52,585 nucleotides of DNA from an uncultured Pseudomonadota bacterium. Lineage in GTDB: Bacteria > Myxococcota_A > UBA796 > SXON01. The notes beneath the pieces were generated by a model that saw only the letters and a program-made list of their open reading frames with translations, did not search any database and had not been told where the DNA came from. Below are positions 23,433 to 33,115 of the stretch, piece after piece; position 1 is the first letter of the stretch, and every line of letters starts with the position of its first letter. The position numbers were made by a program, and so were the translations under genes. The stretch lies in assembly GCA_903959175.1 (NCBI GenBank), contig CAJBVW010000082.1:1-52585 (forward strand). The letters run 5' to 3'.

Positions 23433-24107
23433 TCACAGCCCCGCGCAGCCGCTCGCGCCGTCCACCCGCCACATCGCGAAGGTCGACCGCTTCATGTCCG
23501 GCCGCGTGTCGGGCGTGAAGTCGAACACGCGGTGGCTCGCGCCGAGGGTCGCCTGGGCCATCTCGACGATGACCACGCTGCCCTCGACGCGGTCGGGGCC
23601 CACCACGCGCCCGGCGAGGCGGCTGTGGCCGCGCTGCGCGATGTAGACCTCGCCCTTGCCGAAGCCCGGCACCTCGATGATCACGGTGGCGCCGGGGCGG
23701 CCGTCCTTGTCGGCGTCGAGCACGTTGGCGTCCGTGCCGCGGGTGGGGAGGGCGCCGCGGGCCTCGTCGTAGCCGATGGTCTGCAGGCCGGTGTCGGCGG
23801 CGTAGGCCCAGCCGTCCCCCTCGGCGGTGAGGGTGAGCGGGTACGAGCGCGGCTGCATCACGTCGACCCATGCGGGCGGGAGCACGGCCTTCGCCAGCTT
23901 GGACCCTCCCTCCATCCACGTCCGGCACACCGTCTGGGACTGCGTCCACGCGGGAAGGGCGGCGGCGGCGTCCGCGGTGACGGTCACGAGCATGCGCGTC
24001 TTCGAGGTGCTGTGCGTCTCCCCGATGATGGGCGCCTTGGAGACCGTGCCGATGACGACCTCGAGGGCCCAGGTTCCGGTCAGGTCGGGAGGGAGATCGA
24101 GCGGCAT
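23433..24107 (-). CDS. Lipocalin-like beta protein, unknown function
   Basis: A 224-aa protein. The start LPPDLTGTWALEVV has the G-x-W of lipocalin folds (residues ~9-15). Most of the sequence alternates as in a beta barrel (TVIIEVPGFGKGEVYIAQRG). There is a calcium-loop-like D-x-D-x-D-G motif at DADKDGRPG near residue 130, and two Cys (61 and ~222). No signal peptide is visible. It is the last gene of the GT2-PlsC-unknown operon, with its ATG overlapping the PlsC stop by one base. A role in binding or packing the glycosylated carotenoid is a guess from context. The fold assignment is weak and the function unknown. Confidence 0.55.
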   Translation of the reverse strand: MPLDLPPDLTGTWALEVVIGTVSKAPIIGETHSTSKTRMLVTVTADAAAALPAWTQSQTVCRTWMEGGSKLAKAVLPPAWVDVMQPRSYPLTLTAEGDGWAYAADTGLQTIGYDEARGALPTRGTDANVLDADKDGRPGATVIIEVPGFGKGEVYIAQRGHSRLAGRVVGPDRVEGSVVIVEMAQATLGASHRVFDFTPDTRPDMKRSTFAMWRVDGASGCAGL

Positions 24108-24820
24108 CAGCGGGGCCCCGTGAAGAGGGAGAGGAGGCGCGCGCCGAGGCCCCGATCCGCACGCGCCGCGGGTGCGGGGGTGAGCGGGTGGAAGCCGGGC
24201 GCGCCGGTGTCGAGGAATTGATCGACACGGGCCAGCCCCTCGACGAGGGCAGACTCGAGGTCCGCCGGGGGGACCGGGGCCCCGAAGTGGAGGAAGGCGG
24301 CGGGGGCGGCGTCCTCGCGGAAGGCGTAGGTGAGCGCGACGGGCACGACCGGCGCGTTGGAGATCCGCGCGACGAGGGCGGTGCCCGGCCGCACGTCGAG
24401 GGGGCGGAGCCAGGCGGGGCGCTGCCGGCCCTGAGGGTAGATCCAAAGGGCCCGGCCGGGGCGATCGAGGACCTCCGCCGCGGCGCGGATGCCGGAGCGC
24501 GCCCGGGCGCCGCCGGTGCGGTCCACCGCGAGGGCGCCGACGCGCGCGAGCCACGGGAGGCGGGCGAGGGTCGGGGCGTCGACCAGCACGAAGTCCTCGG
24601 CGCCGAGGGCCGCCCCGGCGAGGGTCACGAGGAGGCCGTCCCACCACGCGACGTGGGTGGCCGCGAGGATGAGCGGGCCGTCCGCGAGCCGCGCGCGCGT
24701 CTCTTCCAGGCCGGAGACCCACACGCCCCCGAGCGAGCGGCGGACGCGCCACCGGCAGTAGCCGCGCCAGAGGCGTACGGCCGTTGGGTTGCGACGAAGG
24801 GGCGGGGCGGGCGGGCTCAT
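24107..24820 (-). CDS. PlsC-family acyltransferase, probably for glycosylated carotenoid
   Basis: A 237-aa protein of the lysophosphatidate acyltransferase family. The H-x4-D catalytic motif is HVAWWD (residues ~53-58, THVAWWDGLL). LWIYPQGRQRP corresponds to the EGxR/FPEGT motif, but in altered form (PQGR), and PVVPVALTYAF is the P-loop-like motif. No obvious transmembrane helix is present, although the region near residue 70 is hydrophobic. By analogy with CrtO of Staphylococcus or CruD, and from its position between a GT2 and carotenoid genes, it likely esterifies a sugar of a carotenoid glycoside. It overlaps the GT2 gene by 4 bp and the lipocalin-like gene by 1 bp, forming one operon. Confidence 0.75.
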   Translation of the reverse strand: MSPPAPPLRRNPTAVRLWRGYCRWRVRRSLGGVWVSGLEETRARLADGPLILAATHVAWWDGLLVTLAGAALGAEDFVLVDAPTLARLPWLARVGALAVDRTGGARARSGIRAAAEVLDRPGRALWIYPQGRQRPAWLRPLDVRPGTALVARISNAPVVPVALTYAFREDAAPAAFLHFGAPVPPADLESALVEGLARVDQFLDTGAPGFHPLTPAPAARADRGLGARLLSLFTGPR

Positions 24821-25914
24821 GCGCCTCCCCGGGCGCCGCGGGCCGCGTAGATGCGCCCCCGCCAGCGGATCGTCCCGCTGCGGCTCCACCGCCACGAGTT
24901 CACCGCGAGCGCGAGGAGGGCGAGGACCCCGACGGGGTGCGCAGGGACGACCCACGCCGCGTGCCGGAAGCGCACGGCGAGCAGGACGCGCTGGGTGAGG
25001 TTGGCGAGCACGCCGACTGCCGCCGGGATCGGCGCGAAGGGGAGGGCGAACCAGGGGAGCAGGAAGCATGTCGCGTAGAGCGCGAGCGTGAGGGCGAGCG
25101 CCCCGGCGCTGGCGCCGATGCCCTCGTACAGGTTCTTGGAGAAGCCCTCCCACGCCTCGCGCCCCGACCGATACATACGACACGTGGCGATACATGCGCC
25201 GTCCACGAAGGCCACGCGCAGGCCCGCACGCTTGGCAGCGCGGCAGAACGCCATGTCGTCGACCACCTCGCTCGCGACCGAGCCGTAGCCCCCGAAGCGC
25301 GCGTAGGCCTCCCGGCGGACGGCCATGATCTGGCCGTTGGCGGCGAGGATCCGCGGGTCGGACAGGGCGCGCACGAGGCGGAGCGGCAGCCAGCTCGTGT
25401 ACGTGAGGTGGAGGAGCGGGACGACCAGCCCCTCGCCGGCGCTGCCCGTCTGCTGGAGGGGGAGGAAGGAGACGACGTCGGCGTCCGCGACGGCGGCGGA
25501 GACGCGCTCGAGGGCGTGGGGCTGGAGGATCGTGTCGGCGTCGACGAACACGAGGAGGTCACCCGAGGCGGCGGAGGCGAGCTGATGGCAGGCGTGGGCC
25601 TTCCCGACGCGGCCCGCCGGGAGGGGCACGCCCTGGAGCACGCGGAGGCGCGGCTCGCGCGCGGCGAGGGCGGCGAGGATCTCGGGCGTCGTGTCCGTGG
25701 AGCGATCGTCGCAGACGATGATCTCGGTGAAAGGCTCGCGGAGCAGGGCCTCGACACACGCGGCGATGCCGCCCTCCTCGTTCCGGGCAGGCACCAGGGC
25801 GCTCGCGCGGAGGGGCGGGGCGCGGGTGGTCGCCGGGCGCCAGGTAGCAAGGTTGATCGCGGTGATCGCGAGGGGAACCAGCGGCGGGGCGACGAGGAGC
25901 AGCCAGGCGGTCAT
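24817..25914 (-). CDS. Family 2 membrane glycosyltransferase, probably carotenoid-specific (CrtQ-like)
   Basis: A 365-aa protein. One N-terminal helix (residues 1-20) is followed by a GT2 domain: ALVPARNEEGGIAACVEALL, CDDRSTDTTPEIL (DD), LLVFVDADTILQP (DAD), a EVVDDMAFC motif and RMYRSGREAWEGFSKNL, which resembles the R-x-Y...W-x-G-x-S-K-N element of carotenoid GT2 enzymes. Two more helices follow near residues 265-290 and 325-340. The ATG at 25914 has an SD (GGAG, 5 nt upstream). A longer in-frame start at 25977 would pass through the operator and is rejected. The gene is first in the operon with the acyltransferase, divergent from crtE across a shared control region. Its coding sequence also contains two CGATACAT boxes. 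Confidence 0.75.
   Translation of the reverse strand: MTAWLLLVAPPLVPLAITAINLATWRPATTRAPPLRASALVPARNEEGGIAACVEALLREPFTEIIVCDDRSTDTTPEILAALAAREPRLRVLQGVPLPAGRVGKAHACHQLASAASGDLLVFVDADTILQPHALERVSAAVADADVVSFLPLQQTGSAGEGLVVPLLHLTYTSWLPLRLVRALSDPRILAANGQIMAVRREAYARFGGYGSVASEVVDDMAFCRAAKRAGLRVAFVDGACIATCRMYRSGREAWEGFSKNLYEGIGASAGALALTLALYATCFLLPWFALPFAPIPAAVGVLANLTQRVLLAVRFRHAAWVVPAHPVGVLALLALAVNSWRWSRSGTIRWRGRIYAARGARGGA
25169..25195. repeat. Two CGATACAT boxes, 19 bp apart, inside the GT2 gene
   Basis: CGATACAT occurs at 25169-25176 and 25188-25195. On the coding strand they give TGT ATC and ATG TAT codons with nearby TGT and CGT, which are unusual codons here. They resemble the TGATACAT elements elsewhere in the carotenoid cluster and may be regulatory sites placed in coding DNA. 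Confidence 0.45.
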
Positions 25915-25925
25915 CGGATCTCCGT

Positions 25926-25980
25926 GCTTGCACACTCTGTGCAGGAGTTGTATAAGGTTTGTATGGAGTTTGCACAACTC
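25926..25980. promoter_or_regulatory. Bidirectional crtE/GT2 promoter with 11-bp direct-repeat operator
   Basis: Plus strand (crtE): -35 TTGCAC (25928-25933), 17-nt spacer, -10 TATAAG (25951-25956). Minus strand (GT2): -35 TTGTGC (25977-25972), 17-nt spacer, -10 TATACA (25954-25949). The two -10 boxes overlap. Units starting at 25937, 25948, 25959 and 25970 are 11-bp repeats (C/TTGTGC, TTGTAT, TTGTAT, TTGCAC). CarH in Thermus binds 11-bp direct repeats. A TGCACA/TGTGCA dyad lies at 25929-25943. Confidence 0.7.
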
Positions 25981-25994
25981 TTCGCGGAGGCGGA

Positions 25995-27047
25995 ATGCGC
26001 TACGATCGGATCGAGAGGGCGGGGCTGAGCGTCGCGGACGAGCAGGAGATCGACCCTCCCGGGCTCTGGGCGGCGGACGGCCTCTCCGAGGTCGAGGAGG
26101 TCATGAGCCAACTCGCCGTGGGTACGCGCCTCGAACGCTCCGGCCACATCGTGCAGGAGCACCTCGCGACGGGCGGGAAGCGGCTCCGCGCCCGGCTCGC
26201 GCTGTCTACCCTCGAGGCCCTCGGCGGCCGGCGGAGCGGCGGGATCGGCTGGGCCGCCGCGTGCGAGCTGGTGCACAACGCCACGCTGATCCACGACGAC
26301 CTCCAGGACGGCGACACCGTGCGCCGCGGGCACCCCACCACCTGGGTGCGTCACGGCGCGGCCCAGGCGGTGAACGCGGGGGACCTCCTCCTCATGTTGC
26401 CGTTCCTCGCGCTCGACTCCGTCGCGGTGGACGGCGCCGTGCGCTGGCAGCTCTCCCGCTCCATCGCCAAGCGGGCCGAGGCCACCGTGCGCGGGCAGTC
26501 GCTCGAGCTCGAGCTCCTCGCCGGCCGCCGCACCGACTGGGACACCTGGATCCGCGCGATCGAGGGCAAGACCGGCGCGCTGCTCGCCCTCCCCGTCGAG
26601 GGCGCGGCGCTCATCACCGGCCTCTCCCCCGAGGCCGCCGCGGCGTTCGGCCAGGAGTTCATTCGGATCGGCGTGCTCTACCAGCTCGCGGACGACGTGG
26701 TCGACCTCTTCGGAGACAAGGGCCGCGACGCCCGCGGCAGCGATCTGCGCGAGGGCAAGGTCAGCGCCCTCGTCGTCGAGCACCTCCGCCTCCACCCGGA
26801 GGACGCCGCGTGGCTCCTCGGCGTGCTCGAGGCCCCCCGCGAGCTCACCCTCGCCGCGGACGTGGCCAACACCATCGAGCGCTTCCGCGACGGCGGCGCC
26901 CTCGCCGGCGTGCTCGCCCGCTACGCCGCCTACGAGTCCCGCATCCTCGACGCGCCGCTCCTGCGCGCCGTCCCCGATCTCCACGCCGTGGCGCGCGCGC
27001 TCTGCGCCCAGATCCGCTCCACCCTCCCCGAGGTTCGCTCCACATGA
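25995..27047 (+). CDS. crtE: Geranylgeranyl (polyprenyl) diphosphate synthase
   Basis: A 350-aa isoprenyl diphosphate synthase. The first Asp-rich motif is DDLQD (residues 101-105, LIHDDLQDG) and the second is DDVVD (~residue 233, YQLADDVVDLFGDKG), both intact. GGKRLRARL (residues 60-68) supplies basic contacts, as expected. It should elongate isopentenyl units to GGPP for phytoene synthesis. The ATG at 25995 has GGAGG 4 nt upstream and is 32 nt after the predicted transcription start; an earlier ATG at 25959 lies inside the -10/operator region and is rejected. Its TGA overlaps the crtI start by 4 bp. Exact chain length cannot be proven, but the operon supports GGPP. Confidence 0.85.
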   Translation: MRYDRIERAGLSVADEQEIDPPGLWAADGLSEVEEVMSQLAVGTRLERSGHIVQEHLATGGKRLRARLALSTLEALGGRRSGGIGWAAACELVHNATLIHDDLQDGDTVRRGHPTTWVRHGAAQAVNAGDLLLMLPFLALDSVAVDGAVRWQLSRSIAKRAEATVRGQSLELELLAGRRTDWDTWIRAIEGKTGALLALPVEGAALITGLSPEAAAAFGQEFIRIGVLYQLADDVVDLFGDKGRDARGSDLREGKVSALVVEHLRLHPEDAAWLLGVLEAPRELTLAADVANTIERFRDGGALAGVLARYAAYESRILDAPLLRAVPDLHAVARALCAQIRSTLPEVRST

Positions 27048-28558
27048 AGCCCACCGTCGTCATCGGCGCCGGGTTCGCCGGCCTCGCCTCCGCGATCCGC
27101 CTCCGCGCCCAGGGTCACAACGTCCTCGTGCTCGAAGCCACCGACCAGGCGGGGGGGCGCGCGAGCGTCTTCAAGCAGGACGGCTTCGCCTTCGACGCCG
27201 GCCCGACCGTCATCACCGCGCCCTACCTCTTCGCCGAGCTCTTCGAGCTCGTGGGCCGCGACCCCGCCGACTACATCACGCTCCTCCCGGTCGACCCCTT
27301 CTACCGGGTCGAGTTTCCGGACGGCTCGCGCTTCGACTACGTCGGCGACGAGGACCGCATCCTCGCCCAGATCCAGGAGATGTCGCCCCGCGACGTCGAC
27401 GGCTACCGCCGCCTCGCCGCCCAGTCCAAGCGCATCTTCGACGTGGGCTACACCCAGCTCGTCGATCAGCCCTTCGACCGCTTCTGGGACATGGCGAAGA
27501 TCGTCCCGCAGATGATGCAGCTCCGCAGCTTCCAGACCGTGTACGGCATGGTCGCGAGCTACCTGAAGGACGAGCGCCTGCGCCAGGTGTTCACGTTCCA
27601 GCCGCTGCTCGTCGGCGGCAGCCCCTTCTCCACGACCTCCATCTACATGCTGATCCACTGGCTCGAGCGCAAGTGGGGCGTGTGGTTCGCGAAGGGCGGC
27701 ACGGGCGCCCTCGTCGACGCGATGGTCAAGCTGCTCGCCGAGCTCGACGTCGAGGTGCGGCTGAACAGCCCGGTCGAGGAGATCGAGGTCGAGAACGGCA
27801 AGGCCACGGCCGTGCGCATCACCGGCGGCCAGCGCATCGAGTGCGACACCGTCGTGTGCAACGCCGACCCCTCCTTTGTCTACACGAAGATGATCAAGCC
27901 GGAGCACCGCCGCACCCACACGGACGCCGCGGTGAAGCGCAAGAGCCCGTCGATGAGCCTGTTCGTCGCCTACTTCGGCGCCGAGCGGACCTACCCGGAC
28001 CTCGCCCACCACACGATCATCCTCGGGCCCCGCTACAAGGGCCTGCTGCACGATATCTTCAACCGGAAGGTGCTCGCGGACGACTTCTCGCTCTACCTGC
28101 ACGCGCCCGCGCGCACCGACCCGTCCATGGCGCCCCCGGGGAAGGAGGCGTTCTACGTCCTCTCCCCGATCCCGAACGACCGCAGCGGCCTCGATTGGGA
28201 GACCATCGAGCCGGAGTACACCGACCGCATCATGAGCTACCTCGACCGGACGCACGTGCCCGGGATCAAGGCGGACCTCTCGACGATAAAGACCGTCGAC
28301 CCCCGCTACTTCCGGAACAACCTCCGCTCGGTGGATGGCGCGGCGTTCGGCATCGAGCCGACGCTCACGCAGTCGGCGTACTTCCGCTACCACAACCGAT
28401 CGGAGGACGTGGACGGCTTGTTCTTCGTCGGCGCCAGCACCCATCCGGGGGCGGGGGTCCCCGGCGTGTTGAACTCGGCGAAGGTGTTGGAGAAGGTGGT
28501 GCCGCGGCCGGCGCATCCCGTGCCGCTGCCGCCGTCCCTCCGCGTCGTCGCGTCGTAG
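27044..28558 (+). CDS. crtI: Phytoene desaturase
   Basis: A 504-aa CrtI-type flavoprotein. The N-terminus has the FAD motif GAGFAGLASAIRLRAQGH (residues ~7-24) with VLVLEATDQAGGRA, then DAGPTVITAPYLF (residues ~53-65), and the CrtI signature near the C-terminus: GLFFVGASTHPGAGVPGVL (residues ~462-480). It should introduce double bonds into phytoene to form neurosporene or lycopene, at the membrane. Number of steps cannot be predicted from sequence. It overlaps crtE by 4 bp and is followed at 8 bp by the B12-domain regulator, so it is part of the crtE-crtI-regulator operon. It is distinct from the CrtD-like paralogue at 31625. Confidence 0.9.
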   Translation: MKPTVVIGAGFAGLASAIRLRAQGHNVLVLEATDQAGGRASVFKQDGFAFDAGPTVITAPYLFAELFELVGRDPADYITLLPVDPFYRVEFPDGSRFDYVGDEDRILAQIQEMSPRDVDGYRRLAAQSKRIFDVGYTQLVDQPFDRFWDMAKIVPQMMQLRSFQTVYGMVASYLKDERLRQVFTFQPLLVGGSPFSTTSIYMLIHWLERKWGVWFAKGGTGALVDAMVKLLAELDVEVRLNSPVEEIEVENGKATAVRITGGQRIECDTVVCNADPSFVYTKMIKPEHRRTHTDAAVKRKSPSMSLFVAYFGAERTYPDLAHHTIILGPRYKGLLHDIFNRKVLADDFSLYLHAPARTDPSMAPPGKEAFYVLSPIPNDRSGLDWETIEPEYTDRIMSYLDRTHVPGIKADLSTIKTVDPRYFRNNLRSVDGAAFGIEPTLTQSAYFRYHNRSEDVDGLFFVGASTHPGAGVPGVLNSAKVLEKVVPRPAHPVPLPPSLRVVAS

Positions 28559-28566
28559 GGGGCGAC

Positions 28567-29520
28567 ATGGGCTACCGCGTGAAGACGGTCTCCGCGATGA
28601 CGGGCATCCCGCGTCCGACGCTGCTGGCGTGGGAGCGGAGGCACGACATCCTCGAGCCGTCCCGGTCGCCCGCCGGGTACCGCGAGTACTCCGACGCGGA
28701 CGTCGCCGCGTTACGACGGCTCAAGGCGCTGGTGGACAGCGGGTACAGCATCGGAGAGTCCGTGGAGCTCGCCCGGAGCGCGTCGCCGCCGCCCTCCCGC
28801 GAGCCCGTGCGCGCCCCGCCGATGGTGGTCGCGGAGCCACTCTTCGCCGACCACGGGCTGGTGGTCCACGCCATCCTCCGCGCGCTCCTCGCCTTCGACC
28901 GCGCCACCGCCGACCGCCTCCTCCCGAAGCTGGGGCAGGTGTCCTTCGCCGTCGCGATCGACCGCGTGTTCGTGCCGGTGATGTACGCGCTCGCGGAGAA
29001 GTGCGACCGCGGCGAGGTCTCCATCGCGCAGGAGCACTTCGTCTCCGGCTTCTGCCGGGAGCACCTCCTCGCGATGTATCACGAGCTCGGCGGAGGCCCC
29101 GAGGGGGGCGTCACCGTCGCCTGCGCCACGCCGTCGGGAGAGCGCCACGAGTTCGGCCTGCTCGTGCTCGCGCTCAAGCTCGCCCTCGCCGGGCACCGCG
29201 TCCTGTGGCTCGGCATCGAGCTCCCCACCGCAGACCTCTGCGCGTTCCTCGCCGCCCAGCGCCCCCGCTTCCTGTGCCTCTCCTTCACGGGGCCCATCGC
29301 CAAGGAAGAGCTGGTCCGCTTCGGGCGGTCGCTCCGCGAGGGCGCCCCGGCCGACACCGAGATCGTCTTCGGCGGGCCCGGCGTGCACGATCACGTCGGC
29401 ACCCTCGCCGAGGGCGTCGTGGTCTTCGGCACGGTCGCCGAGCTCGAGGCGCGCGTGGGCCGCGCGGAGCCCGAGTCGTGGCGCAGCCGCGTCGTGCGGG
29501 AACCGCGTGCGTCCGGCTGA
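28567..29520 (+). CDS. CarH/LitR-type MerR regulator with B12-binding domain and altered photoreceptor motif
   Basis: A 317-aa protein. Residues 1-70 form a MerR helix-turn-helix (KTVSAMTGIPRPTLLAWERR and PAGYREYSDADVAAL). Residues ~90-175 form the four-helix B12-capping domain. Residues ~180-300 form the B12-binding Rossmann domain with E192-x-H194-x-x-G197 (ERHEFG), where His would bind cobalt, and GGPGVHD. In AdoCbl photoreceptors the helical domain has W-x9-E-H; here the E-H is kept (E156-H157) but the Trp is Cys146 (TGC, 29002-29004) and the next residue, His in CarH, is Asp147. Light response could be lost or changed. It likely represses the crtE/GT2 promoter. It is in the crtE-crtI operon and so would autoregulate. 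Confidence 0.85.
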   Translation: MGYRVKTVSAMTGIPRPTLLAWERRHDILEPSRSPAGYREYSDADVAALRRLKALVDSGYSIGESVELARSASPPPSREPVRAPPMVVAEPLFADHGLVVHAILRALLAFDRATADRLLPKLGQVSFAVAIDRVFVPVMYALAEKCDRGEVSIAQEHFVSGFCREHLLAMYHELGGGPEGGVTVACATPSGERHEFGLLVLALKLALAGHRVLWLGIELPTADLCAFLAAQRPRFLCLSFTGPIAKEELVRFGRSLREGAPADTEIVFGGPGVHDHVGTLAEGVVVFGTVAELEARVGRAEPESWRSRVVREPRASG

Positions 29521-29532
29521 CGCGGCCGCCGG

Positions 29533-29554
29533 TGATACATCGGGCGATGTATCA
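29533..29554. repeat. TGATACATCG perfect palindrome between regulator and crtB
   Basis: Arms TGATACATCG (29533-29542) and CGATGTATCA (29545-29554) are perfect over 10 bp with a GG centre. It lies between the convergent stops of the regulator and crtB, and includes the crtB stop codon (29552-29554). It matches the element at 23383 in 13 of 14 bases on its left side. Operator or bidirectional end signal are both possible. Confidence 0.65.
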
Positions 29555-30493
29555 GTCGGTGTCCGTCCCGGGCAGGCCCTCGAGGCCGACGTGCAACGCC
29601 CGCTCGTGCGGAGGCGCCTGCACCCACCCGGCGACCCTCGGGCGGAGCGCCGCGAGCAGGCCCAGGCTGGCCCAGACGCCCTTCTCCCACCACGGCACGA
29701 TGGTGCGGCCGGCCCAGGTGTCCGCGCCGTTGCGCAGCAGGCGACGCCCGATCGCGCGGTAGACACGGCTCGCGACGAGGATGGCGAGGCGGCTGCGCCA
29801 GGGGATGTGGCGCATCGCGTCGTCCGCGCTGGCGTAGTAGCGCTCGGCCAGCGCGAGCAGCTCCCGGACCACGCCGACCAGCTTCGCGCGGTCGACGTCG
29901 CCGGCGGCGAGGCGCTCGGGGTCGATCCCGGCGGCGCGCAGGCGGGTCGCGGGGAGGTAGACGCGGCCGAGGCCGGCGTCCTCCCGCACGTCGCGGCAGA
30001 TGTTGGTGATCTGCATGCCGATGCCGAGGTCGACCGCGTGGGCGAGGGCGCCGCGGTGGGTGACGCCGATGACGCCGCACATCATCAGGCCGACCGTGCC
30101 GGCGACGCGGTAGCAGTAGCGGAGCAGCGCGGCGTCGTCCGGGACGCGCACGGCGCCCTGGTCCGAGCCGATGCCGACGTTCAGCTCGTGGGCGCTCGCG
30201 AGGTCGATGCCGCGGCGGCGGGCCACGGCGTGCAGGGCGGCGACGAGCGGGCGCGGCGGGGCGGTGCCGAGCAGCTCGGCGTCGAGCTGGGCCAGGTCCG
30301 CGGCGCCGACGGCGGGATCCTCGGCTTCATCCACCAGATCGTCCGCGAGGCGGCAGAAGGCGTAGACGACGGCGGCGTCGTCTCGCGCATCTGCTGGCAG
30401 GAACACCGATGCCCAGCGGAAGGAGCGGGCGTGGGTCGCGAGCACGTCGCGGCTGGACGCGACGATGTCCGTCGTCTCGGGTTCGGCCGCCAT
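29552..30493 (-). CDS. crtB: Phytoene synthase
   Basis: A 313-aa squalene/phytoene synthase. The first Asp motif is DDLVD (residues 51-55, AFCRLADDLVDEAED); the second is DVRED (residues 168-172, NICRDVREDAGLGRVYLP), followed by the YLP element. It joins two GGPP into phytoene. The segment near residue 105 (HELNVGIGSDQ) is less conserved than the usual D-G-M-x-x-D motif of the family, which may alter substrate handling, though both magnesium motifs are intact. It is the only carotenoid gene on the minus strand in the right half of the cluster and starts 60 bp from the divergent crtC, so both are likely controlled from that gap. The stop codon lies within a palindrome. Confidence 0.85.
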   Translation of the reverse strand: MAAEPETTDIVASSRDVLATHARSFRWASVFLPADARDDAAVVYAFCRLADDLVDEAEDPAVGAADLAQLDAELLGTAPPRPLVAALHAVARRRGIDLASAHELNVGIGSDQGAVRVPDDAALLRYCYRVAGTVGLMMCGVIGVTHRGALAHAVDLGIGMQITNICRDVREDAGLGRVYLPATRLRAAGIDPERLAAGDVDRAKLVGVVRELLALAERYYASADDAMRHIPWRSRLAILVASRVYRAIGRRLLRNGADTWAGRTIVPWWEKGVWASLGLLAALRPRVAGWVQAPPHERALHVGLEGLPGTDTD

Positions 30494-30552
30494 GCCGCCC
30501 CGCTAACGCGCCCCCGGCCCGGCCGAGCGCCGACGGCCCCGCAGGAGCCCGC

Positions 30553-31632
30553 ATGCTGTCGTTGACCCGCGCCGACGTCCCCCCGCGCCGCGCGACGCTG
30601 GACGCGCCCGGCGGCTTCTCCTGGTGGTATGGCGACATCGTGGACGCCGCGGGCAACGGCCTCGTCGTCATCGGGGCCTGGGGCCTGCCGTTCCTCCCCG
30701 GCTACGCGGCGGCGGCGCGGCGGGGCGCCCCCGAACGCGCGGGGAGCCGCCCCTCGCTCAACCTCGCGCTCTACGAGGGAGGGCGGCCGGTGGCCTACCT
30801 CCTCCAGGAGACGCCGGGCGAGTGGGTCAGCGACACGTGTTGGCGCTTCGGCGACAGCGTGCTCACCAGCGAGATCGTGAACGGCGAGCGCCGCCTACAC
30901 GCGACGATCGACTGCCCCGTGGCCGGCACCTCCGCGCGCATGGTCGGCGCGCTCGAGATCGTCGGCCGCCCGCGCGTGTCCGGCCCCGACGAGCCCGCCG
31001 ACGGCCCCCACCGATGGACGCCCCTCGCGACACCCGCGCGTGGAGAGGCGAGCTTCTCCCTGGGAGACGGCTTCCGCTTCGCCGTGGCCGGCCGCGCCTA
31101 CCACGACCGCAACGAGTGCGAGGTCCCCCTCGCCGCCCTCGGCATCGGCGAGTGGTTGTGGGGCCGCGCGCCGCTCGGAGACGACGAGGTCGTGTGGTAC
31201 CTGCTCTGGCCTGAGGGCGGCGGCGCGCCGACCGCGTGGGGCCTGCGCCTCTCCCCGGACGGGCGGACCACGCCCGTCGAGGGCCTGACCGTGCGGCTGG
31301 CCGAGCGCCGCCGCAGCGTCTACGGCCTGGCGTGGTGGGACCATGTATCACTCGATGTATCAGGTGATACATGGCTCACCGTCCGTCACGGCACGCCGGT
31401 GGAGGACGGGCCCTTCTACCTGCGCTTCTTCCCGGTGGTGGAGGGGGCCGGCCTGAGCGGTCGAGGCGTGGCCGAGCTCGTGCGGCCGGATCGCGTGGAC
31501 CTCGACTGGATGCGCCCGTTCGTGCGGATGCGTGTCCGCCCGCCGGGCGCCGGCGCGTCGATGTGGCTGCCGCTGTTCGAGGGCCCCGCGGTGGGGCGGG
31601 CCGGGCGTCTGCTGGGGTTCGGCGGTGGCTGA
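30553..31632 (+). CDS. crtC: Carotenoid 1,2-hydratase (hydroxyneurosporene synthase-like)
   Basis: A 359-aa protein similar to CrtC. The family elements seen are GGFSWWYGDIVDAAGNGLVVI (residues ~16-36), YHDRNECEVPL (~residue 187, the YHD-N pattern) and the DxxLxWxMP-like terminal strand region. CrtC adds water to the terminal double bond of acyclic carotenes, giving 1-hydroxy groups for later glycosylation. It fits the absence of a visible cyclase. The ATG at 30553 follows an AGGAG at 30543-30547. The stop overlaps the crtD start by 8 bp. Inside it, at 31341-31374, three TGTATCA boxes force rare codons GTA, TCA and ACA. Confidence 0.75.
   Translation: MLSLTRADVPPRRATLDAPGGFSWWYGDIVDAAGNGLVVIGAWGLPFLPGYAAAARRGAPERAGSRPSLNLALYEGGRPVAYLLQETPGEWVSDTCWRFGDSVLTSEIVNGERRLHATIDCPVAGTSARMVGALEIVGRPRVSGPDEPADGPHRWTPLATPARGEASFSLGDGFRFAVAGRAYHDRNECEVPLAALGIGEWLWGRAPLGDDEVVWYLLWPEGGGAPTAWGLRLSPDGRTTPVEGLTVRLAERRRSVYGLAWWDHVSLDVSGDTWLTVRHGTPVEDGPFYLRFFPVVEGAGLSGRGVAELVRPDRVDLDWMRPFVRMRVRPPGAGASMWLPLFEGPAVGRAGRLLGFGGG
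31341..31374. repeat. Triple TGTATCA element inside crtC
   Basis: CCATGTATCAC (31341-31351) and GTGATACATGG (31364-31374) form a perfect 11-bp inverted repeat. A further ATGTATCA copy lies between them at 31355-31362, 12 bp after the first. The reading frame here uses GTA TCA, GTA TCA and ACA, all rare in this very GC-rich genome, so the DNA sequence seems to be conserved for a non-coding reason. Confidence 0.65.
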
Positions 31633-33115
31633 GCGCGACGCCATCGTGGTCGGCGCGGGCCTCGGCGGGCTGGCGGCCGCCATCGAGCTCGCGGCGCGCG
31701 GCTGGCGCGTGCGGGTGCTGGAGGGGGCGTCGGTGCCGGGCGGGAAGGCGGGCGTGGTGACGGTGGACGGCGTCGAGGCCGACACCGGACCGAGCGTGCT
31801 CACCCTGCCGGACGTGCTGGACGCCGTGCTGCGCGCGGGTGGATCGTCGCTGGCGGACGAGCTGGAGCTGCGCGCGCCCTCGCCGGCGTTCCGCTACCTC
31901 TGGCCGGACGGCGCCGCCCTCGACGTGGCGCACCGCGCGGACGAGACCCTCGCCAACGTGGGCGCGGCGCTCGGCGGGGCGGCGGAGCGGGAGCTGTCGA
32001 GCTTCCTCGCCTATTCGAAGCGCATCTGGGACGCGGCGGCGCCGAACTTCGTGCTCGGTCCGGCGCCGTCGGTGCTGGGCGTGGCGAAGCTCGGCTTGCG
32101 CGCCTTCGCGCTGGTGGCCGACATCGACAGCCTGCGCGCGATGGAGCGCGCCATCACGACGCGCGTGCGCGATCCGCACCTGCGCGACCTCCTCGGGCGC
32201 TACGCGACCTACAACGGCTCGGACCTGCGCGCGGCCCCCGCGACGCTCAACTGCATCGCCCACCTCGAGCTCGTGGGCGGCGGCTTCGGCGTGACCGGCG
32301 GCATGTACGCGGTGGTGCGCGCCCTCGTGCGCGTGGCGGAGCGGCAGGGCGTGGAGGTCCGGTGCGGCTGCCCGGTGACGCGCATCCTCGTCGAGGGCGG
32401 CCGCGTGACGGGCGTGGAGGCCGGCGGCGAGCGGCTGGACGCCGCGGTCGTCGTGGTGAACGCGGACGTGGGGGCGCTCCTGCCCGGAGCGCCCGGCGGC
32501 CTGCTCGGGCCCGAGGTGCGGAGCGGCCTCGCGATCGAGGCGCCGCGGTCGATGTCGGGGTGGACGGGCATCCTCCGCGCGCGGCGGGGCGCGCCCCGGG
32601 CGGCCCACACCGTGCTCTTCCCCGGGCGGTCCTACGCCGAGGAGTTCGCCGACATCTTCGACCGGGACCAGCCCCCGGTCGAGCCGACCGTGTACCTCTG
32701 CGCGCAGGAGGCGTGCCACGGCCGCGCCGGGTGGGCCGCGGAGGAGCCCGTGTTCGTGATGGTGAACGCGCCGGCCGAGCCCGCGACGGGCGCGCGGGAC
32801 CCCGCCCTCTGGGCGCGCGTGGAGGCGACGGCGATGGCGCGGCTGCGAGGCGCCGGGCTGGCGGACGCGACGGACACCCTCGTCTGGCGCCGCACCCCCG
32901 CCGAGCTGGCGGCGCGCTTCCCGGGCAGCCGCGGTGCGCTCTACGGCGCGGCGAGCAACACGACCTTCTCGGCCTTCCGGCGGCCCGCCAACACGGTTCC
33001 CAAGGTCCCGGGCCTGTTCCTCGCGTCCGGGAGCGCGCATCCGGGCGGGGGCATGCCGCTCTGCCTCCAGTCCGGGCGGCAGGCCGCGGCCGAGGTCGGC
33101 GCCCCGACCGGGTAG
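31625..33115 (+). CDS. crtD: CrtD-like carotenoid 3,4-desaturase (methoxyneurosporene dehydrogenase type)
   Basis: A 496-aa CrtI-family flavoprotein. The FAD motif is VVGAGLGGLAAAIELAARG (residues ~8-26), followed by EADTGPSVLTLPDVL and a C-terminal LFLASGSAHPGGGMPLCL, a GG-x-x-x-x-G form of the phytoene-dehydrogenase signature. It is the second desaturase in the cluster, placed after crtC. By position and sequence it likely makes the 3,4 double bond of 1-hydroxycarotenoids. It starts with GTG at 31625, 8 bp inside the end of crtC. Alternative: another CrtI-type dehydrogenase of phytoene intermediates, since CrtD/CrtI substrate use is not readable from sequence. Confidence 0.8.
   Translation: MAERDAIVVGAGLGGLAAAIELAARGWRVRVLEGASVPGGKAGVVTVDGVEADTGPSVLTLPDVLDAVLRAGGSSLADELELRAPSPAFRYLWPDGAALDVAHRADETLANVGAALGGAAERELSSFLAYSKRIWDAAAPNFVLGPAPSVLGVAKLGLRAFALVADIDSLRAMERAITTRVRDPHLRDLLGRYATYNGSDLRAAPATLNCIAHLELVGGGFGVTGGMYAVVRALVRVAERQGVEVRCGCPVTRILVEGGRVTGVEAGGERLDAAVVVVNADVGALLPGAPGGLLGPEVRSGLAIEAPRSMSGWTGILRARRGAPRAAHTVLFPGRSYAEEFADIFDRDQPPVEPTVYLCAQEACHGRAGWAAEEPVFVMVNAPAEPATGARDPALWARVEATAMARLRGAGLADATDTLVWRRTPAELAARFPGSRGALYGAASNTTFSAFRRPANTVPKVPGLFLASGSAHPGGGMPLCLQSGRQAAAEVGAPTG

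What the first reader, a model, noticed from the sequence alone, without database searches (positions are those of the whole stretch)
25926..25980. Overlapping divergent promoters crtE/GT2 covered by 11-bp repeats
Both promoters have 17-bp spacers and share a single AT-rich block as the -10 box (TATAAG and TATACA). At least three, probably four, TTGTAT/TTGCAC units repeat with 11-bp phasing across the block. CarH in Thermus is known to bind 11-bp direct repeats over a promoter, so one regulator could control the desaturase and the modification operons together. Because the -10 boxes overlap, polymerase can use only one direction at a time.
Basis: partly seen in the sequence, partly recalled or inferred. 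Interest (0 to 1): 0.75.

Follow-up and report, generated by a model that had tools for sequence, protein, structure and literature searches.

The report
CarH-type operator over divergent carotenoid promoters
Between two back-to-back sets of carotenoid genes of an uncultured myxobacterium lies one 44-bp site of four 11-bp repeats that very probably lets a CarH-family repressor shut both promoters at once; this arrangement is already known from Sorangium, but the local repressor has lost a residue thought essential for vitamin B12 light sensing.

Summary
Two promoter-like sequences with 17-bp spacers face each other between a GT2 glycosyltransferase gene and crtE, and their -10 boxes overlap by 4 bp. 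Read on the minus strand, the block is four contiguous 11-bp units (25937-25980) fitting the published CarH repeat nnnnTnnACAn: two full repeats, two one-off. It scores 14/16 and is the only site of its kind (up to 3 mismatches, overlapping registers aside) in the 7.2 Mb genome. Shuffles reach this score once in 5000. Comparable operators, and overlapping divergent promoters with mostly 17-bp spacers, recur at the same place in many relatives of the same order (Myxococcota).

This is a new member of a known kind. In Sorangium cellulosum one CarH site was shown experimentally to lie over overlapping divergent crtE-crtD promoters (PMC9304148). Two corrections: only crtE-crtI-carH and GT2-acyltransferase are under this site (crtB, crtC and crtD are not), and the linked regulator lacks the Trp of the Wx9EH motif (Cys here), which relatives keep wherever the motif is readable. 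Direct B12/light control is therefore less certain than operator-based repression.

The parts
25937..25980 (-). 44-bp CarH-type operator: four contiguous 11-bp units (dr 25980-25970, dr 25969-25959, DR 25958-25948, DR 25947-25937)
   Evidence: 14/16 to (TnnACA)x4 with 11-bp period; only site of its kind in the genome; 1/5000 shuffles; consensus from PMC9304148
25926..25936 (-). possible weak fifth in-phase unit (2 of 4 consensus bases); also holds the + strand -35
   Evidence: second register 25927-25965, units 3,4,4,2
25928..25956 (+). crtE promoter candidate: TTGCAC - 17 bp - TATAAG
   Evidence: TTGCA and GTATA invariant in 9 aligned sequences; fails strict sigma-70 scan
25949..25977 (-). 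GT2 promoter candidate: TTGTGC - 17 bp - TATACA
   Evidence: fails strict sigma-70 scan
25995..27047 (+). crtE, polyprenyl (GGPP) synthase
   Evidence: PF00348 E=3.9e-44
27044..28558 (+). crtI-type phytoene desaturase, start overlaps crtE stop
   Evidence: mostly 62-72% identical to its syntenic counterparts in relatives; name by homology from general knowledge
28567..29520 (+). CarH/CarA-family regulator (MerR HTH + B12-binding_2 + B12-binding); Cys in place of the Trp of Wx9EH
24817..25914 (-). GT2 family glycosyltransferase, likely carotenoid modification
   Evidence: PF13641 E=1.2e-23; conserved in crt clusters of the order
24107..24823 (-). acyltransferase overlapping the end of GT2 (probable operon; ATG within 24817-24823)
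   Evidence: PF01553 E=3.8e-8

Best explanation
The 44-bp block is an operator for the CarH-family repressor encoded as the third gene of the crtE operon. Several repressor subunits bind side by side to four 11-bp repeats, cover both overlapping -10 boxes and the minus-strand -35, and so shut the crtE-crtI-carH and GT2-acyltransferase promoters together; carH represses itself. When the repressor lets go (in CarH proteins, when light breaks adenosylcobalamin), RNA polymerase can enter, one promoter at a time because the -10 boxes overlap. Shown here: repeat anatomy, uniqueness in the genome, promoter geometry, recurrence in relatives, regulator family and fold. Inferred: binding, repression, autoregulation, release by light.
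For: Operator fits the published CarH consensus and layout: two full plus two imperfect repeats is the Haliangium ochraceum layout, and one site over overlapping divergent crt promoters is the Sorangium layout. Only such site in 7.2 Mb and 1/5000 in shuffles. In 294 kb of relatives' crt loci, 26 of 29 hits scoring 12/16 or more lie outside the mapped genes, in or upstream of the crt divergent region. Overlapping divergent promoters reach p<=0.02 in 15 of 29 relatives and operators p<=0.05 in 15 of 29; TTGCA and GTATA are invariant in 9 aligned sequences. Regulator: MerR and B12-binding domains; best solved-structure matches are Thermus CarH by sequence and by fold. Adenosyltransferase and mutase genes indicate adenosylcobalamin use.
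Against: No binding, footprint or transcript data. Promoters fail a strict sigma-70 scan. Two of four units are imperfect. The regulator lacks the Trp (and the Gly of GxxW) held essential for capping the adenosyl group, which weakens the light/B12 step. About half of the relatives' sites do not reach significance on their own. The offset overlap of two TATA-like boxes is partly built in, because TGTATA reads as a -10 on both strands.
Confidence: 0.8

Rival explanations
1. Same operator and repressor, but the local regulator is CarA-like: it binds DNA without needing B12 or light, and another factor (such as an antirepressor) or simple derepression controls it.
For: C-x9-EH instead of W-x9-EH, with A and D at the neighbouring signature positions, while the B12 motif is intact, is close to the state described for CarA. 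Sister L006 (G024) keeps the Trp, so the loss is on this branch.
Against: CarA and its partners are reported only from Cystobacterineae. A partner search (CarF family PF10520) was uninformative: the controls were silent. Single genome, from an assembled metagenome-type assembly of 611 contigs.
Confidence: 0.3
2. The repeats are an operator for a different regulator, such as the distant paralogue on contig C568, which keeps the Trp.
For: A second MerR + B12-domain protein (30% identical) with GEAWEAGEIQVFHEH exists in the genome.
Against: It lies beside unrelated genes, no operator-like site scoring 11/16 or more was found near it, and the crt-linked regulator is syntenic across the order.
Confidence: 0.07
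3. The repeats are a by-product of two opposed AT-rich promoters in 73% GC DNA, with no regulator binding.
For: Promoter elements (TTG, TATA) alone make part of the repeat; the strands share a near-palindromic TGTATA.
Against: The 11-bp period across four units is rare in shuffles of the same composition (1/5000), and operator-scoring sites recur at relatives' crt promoters.
Confidence: 0.05

Closest known systems
CarH operators of Sorangium cellulosum (PcrtSc1, PcrtSc2; PMC9304148)
   Same: One CarH site of tandem 11-bp repeats over overlapping divergent crt promoters; crt genes on both sides
   Different: Three repeats there, four here; partner gene is crtD (or crtI-carH) there, GT2-acyltransferase here; binding shown there, not here
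CarH operator of Haliangium ochraceum (PcrtHo; PMC9304148)
   Same: Four tandem 11-bp units, two full and two imperfect, overlapping -35/-10
   Different: Described upstream of one carotenoid gene cluster, not as a divergent pair
Thermus thermophilus CarH (PDB 5C8D, 5C8E)
   Same: Fold, domain order, 11-bp direct repeats, lower axial His motif
   Different: Three repeats including the -35; W131 and H132 there are Cys and Asp here
Myxococcus xanthus CarA
   Same: B12 motif and EH kept, Trp lost
   Different: CarA occurs in tandem with CarH in Cystobacterineae; here one regulator stands alone in the cluster, and its relatives are in another order of Myxococcota

Membership tests
CarH-type operator | Tandem 11-bp repeats nnnnTnnACAn, three to four, imperfect units allowed | tested here: met
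   14/16 over four units, minus strand 25980-25937
CarH-type operator | Overlaps -35/-10 of a carotenoid promoter | tested here: met
   Covers both -10 boxes and the minus -35; the promoters themselves are predictions
CarH-type operator | Bound by CarH in the dark with adenosylcobalamin, released by light | not testable with these tools
   Needs EMSA and footprinting
CarH photoreceptor | MerR HTH plus four-helix and Rossmann B12-binding domains | tested here: met
   PF13411 and PF02607 above cut-off, PF02310 29.8 bits just under its 32.1 cut-off; fold match to 5C8D
CarH photoreceptor | D/ExHx2G/P x41 SxT/V x22-27 GG B12 motif | tested here: met
   ERHEFG, 41 residues, SFT, 27 residues, GG in the translation
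CarH photoreceptor | Intact Wx9EH adenosyl-capping motif | tested here: not met
   C-x9-EH; Trp kept in relatives wherever the motif is readable
CarA | EH and B12 motif kept, Trp lost | tested here: met
CarA | Paralogue in tandem with carH, clade inside Cystobacterineae | tested here: not met
   Only one regulator in the cluster; it groups with same-order relatives; no CarA sequence was in the tree
CarA | CarF, CarQ, CarR, CarS, CarD, CarG partners | tested here: inconclusive
   Only CarF tried; the search rang in no control

The most novel reading that the evidence does not exclude
Outside Cystobacterineae, a CarH that kept its ancestral operator has lost its adenosyl-capping Trp and become, independently of CarA, a B12-independent or differently triggered repressor of carotenoid genes.
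Probability: 0.3. Interest if true: 0.5.

Novelty: new member of a known kind. Interest (0 to 1): 0.33.

Why it matters
It extends the experimentally known myxobacterial CarH switch to a set of uncultured Myxococcota and suggests that the overlapping divergent promoter plus single operator is an old, conserved layout. The Cys-for-Trp change offers a natural test of whether losing the adenosyl cap is enough to turn a B12 photoreceptor into a CarA-like repressor.

Tried and rejected
First genome-contig scan with the single regulator found nothing; the alignment query worked. CarF search uninformative. Strict sigma-70 scan found no promoter, kept as a caveat. Looking for operators immediately upstream of crtE failed in L099, L100 and L101; sites there lie about 0.9-1.2 kb further up. 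No site in L119, whose contig ends near crtC. Regex reading of Wx9EH mis-hit several proteins (L009, L012, L016, L030); the Trp is visible in their translations. L163 and short fragments could not be read for this motif. An inverted repeat TGCACA-ctc-TGTGCA (25929-25943) was considered as an alternative operator and set aside because the four-unit register explains more bases.

Full report
Observation. The intergenic between GT2 (ATG at 25914, minus) and crtE (ATG at 25995, plus) is 80 bp with 52% GC in a window of about 73% GC. It holds TTGCAC-17-TATAAG on the plus strand and TTGTGC-17-TATACA on the minus strand, with the -10 hexamers overlapping by 4 bp. Three TTGTAT/TTGCAC words are exactly 11 bp apart, and a fourth in-phase unit precedes them. 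The TTGCAC at 25928 is not in that phase.

Reading it correctly. Perez-Castano et al. (PMC9304148) give the CarH repeat as nnnnTnnACAn. On the minus strand the block is GAGTTGTGCAA / ACTCCATACAA / ACCTTATACAA / CTCCTGCACAG: four contiguous 11-bp units at 25980-25937, two full repeats and two in which one fixed base differs, 14 of 16 fixed bases in all. It is the best site in the window, reached in 1 of 5000 dinucleotide shuffles of the intergenic. With up to 3 mismatches, the only hits in the 7.2 Mb genome are this site and its neighbouring register.

Relatives. In that order crtE-(crtI)-crtB-carH is commonly divergent from crtC-GT2-acyltransferase-crtD. Of 29 relatives' intergenics, 15 have an operator at p<=0.05 and 15 have overlapping divergent promoters at p<=0.02, in 300 shuffles each. 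In most of the latter the -10 offset is 2 or 4 bp and the spacers are mostly 17 bp. In nine aligned sequences TTGCA and GTATA are invariant. In 294 kb of crt loci 29 hits score 12/16 or more; three lie inside coding sequence (one in L097, two in L104), the others in or upstream of the crt divergent region. Part of the -10 overlap is automatic, since TGTATA reads on both strands; the two flanking -35 boxes are not.

Regulator. The 28567-29520 protein has MerR, B12-binding_2 and B12-binding matches, is closest among solved structures to Thermus CarH by sequence, and its AlphaFold model (mean pLDDT 84) has 5C8D, 5C8F and 5C8E as best fold matches. The B12 motif is complete: ERHEFG, 41 residues, SFT, 27 residues, GG. 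But Trp131 is Cys, His132 is Asp and the Gly of GxxW is Ala. The Trp is present in the relatives wherever the motif could be read, including sister L006; the residue at His132 varies widely, so only the Trp and Gly losses stand out. The paper uses an intact Wx9EH to tell CarH from CarA, and the Trp stacks on the adenosyl group in the dark form. So membership in the CarH photoreceptor family fails one defining test, while 'works like a CarH/CarA repressor at this operator' stands. Adenosyltransferase and methylmalonyl-CoA mutase genes are present, so the cofactor is probably available.

Scope of control. The site can serve crtE-crtI-carH and GT2-acyltransferase. crtB (29552-30493, minus) and crtC-crtD (plus, from about 30550) form another divergent pair with about 60 bp between them and no comparable site (best 9/16). 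In most relatives crtB is in the crtE operon and crtC leads the opposite one, so here part of the pathway seems to have left CarH control. This is inference from position only.

Verdict. Real, and more than chance, but of a known kind: S. cellulosum has an experimentally mapped CarH site over overlapping divergent crt promoters, and H. ochraceum has the same make-up of two full and two imperfect units. The new points are the recurrence of the layout across an uncultured order and the Trp-less regulator.

Noticed in passing
window 28567-29520: Regulator has C-x9-EH in place of W-x9-EH, with A and D at the adjacent signature positions; relatives keep the Trp wherever the motif is readable.
   Followed up: partly
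window 29552-33115: crtB (minus) and crtC-crtD (plus) are split off from the usual crt operons, with a GC-rich intergenic of about 60 bp lacking a CarH-type site.
   Followed up: partly
G034 and G035 (same genus; no locus fetched): The two same-genus genomes show no match to the regulator and only weak crtE paralogues, so the cluster is either gained here or lost there.
   Followed up: no
L122 and L123, whole loci: Public MAG records titled Klebsiella pneumoniae carry this myxobacterial-type crt cluster; the titles look mistaken.
   Followed up: no
L085 5024 to about 6300: In relatives with a gap of about 1.3 kb between crtE and crtC, the first gene of the crtE operon looks like a lycopene cyclase (by eye in L085, no HMM run); the window lacks it.
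   Followed up: partly
L170 1603-2493 (G000 contig C568): Distant second CarH-like paralogue that keeps the Trp, near an acetyl-CoA synthetase-like gene (function by eye).
   Followed up: partly
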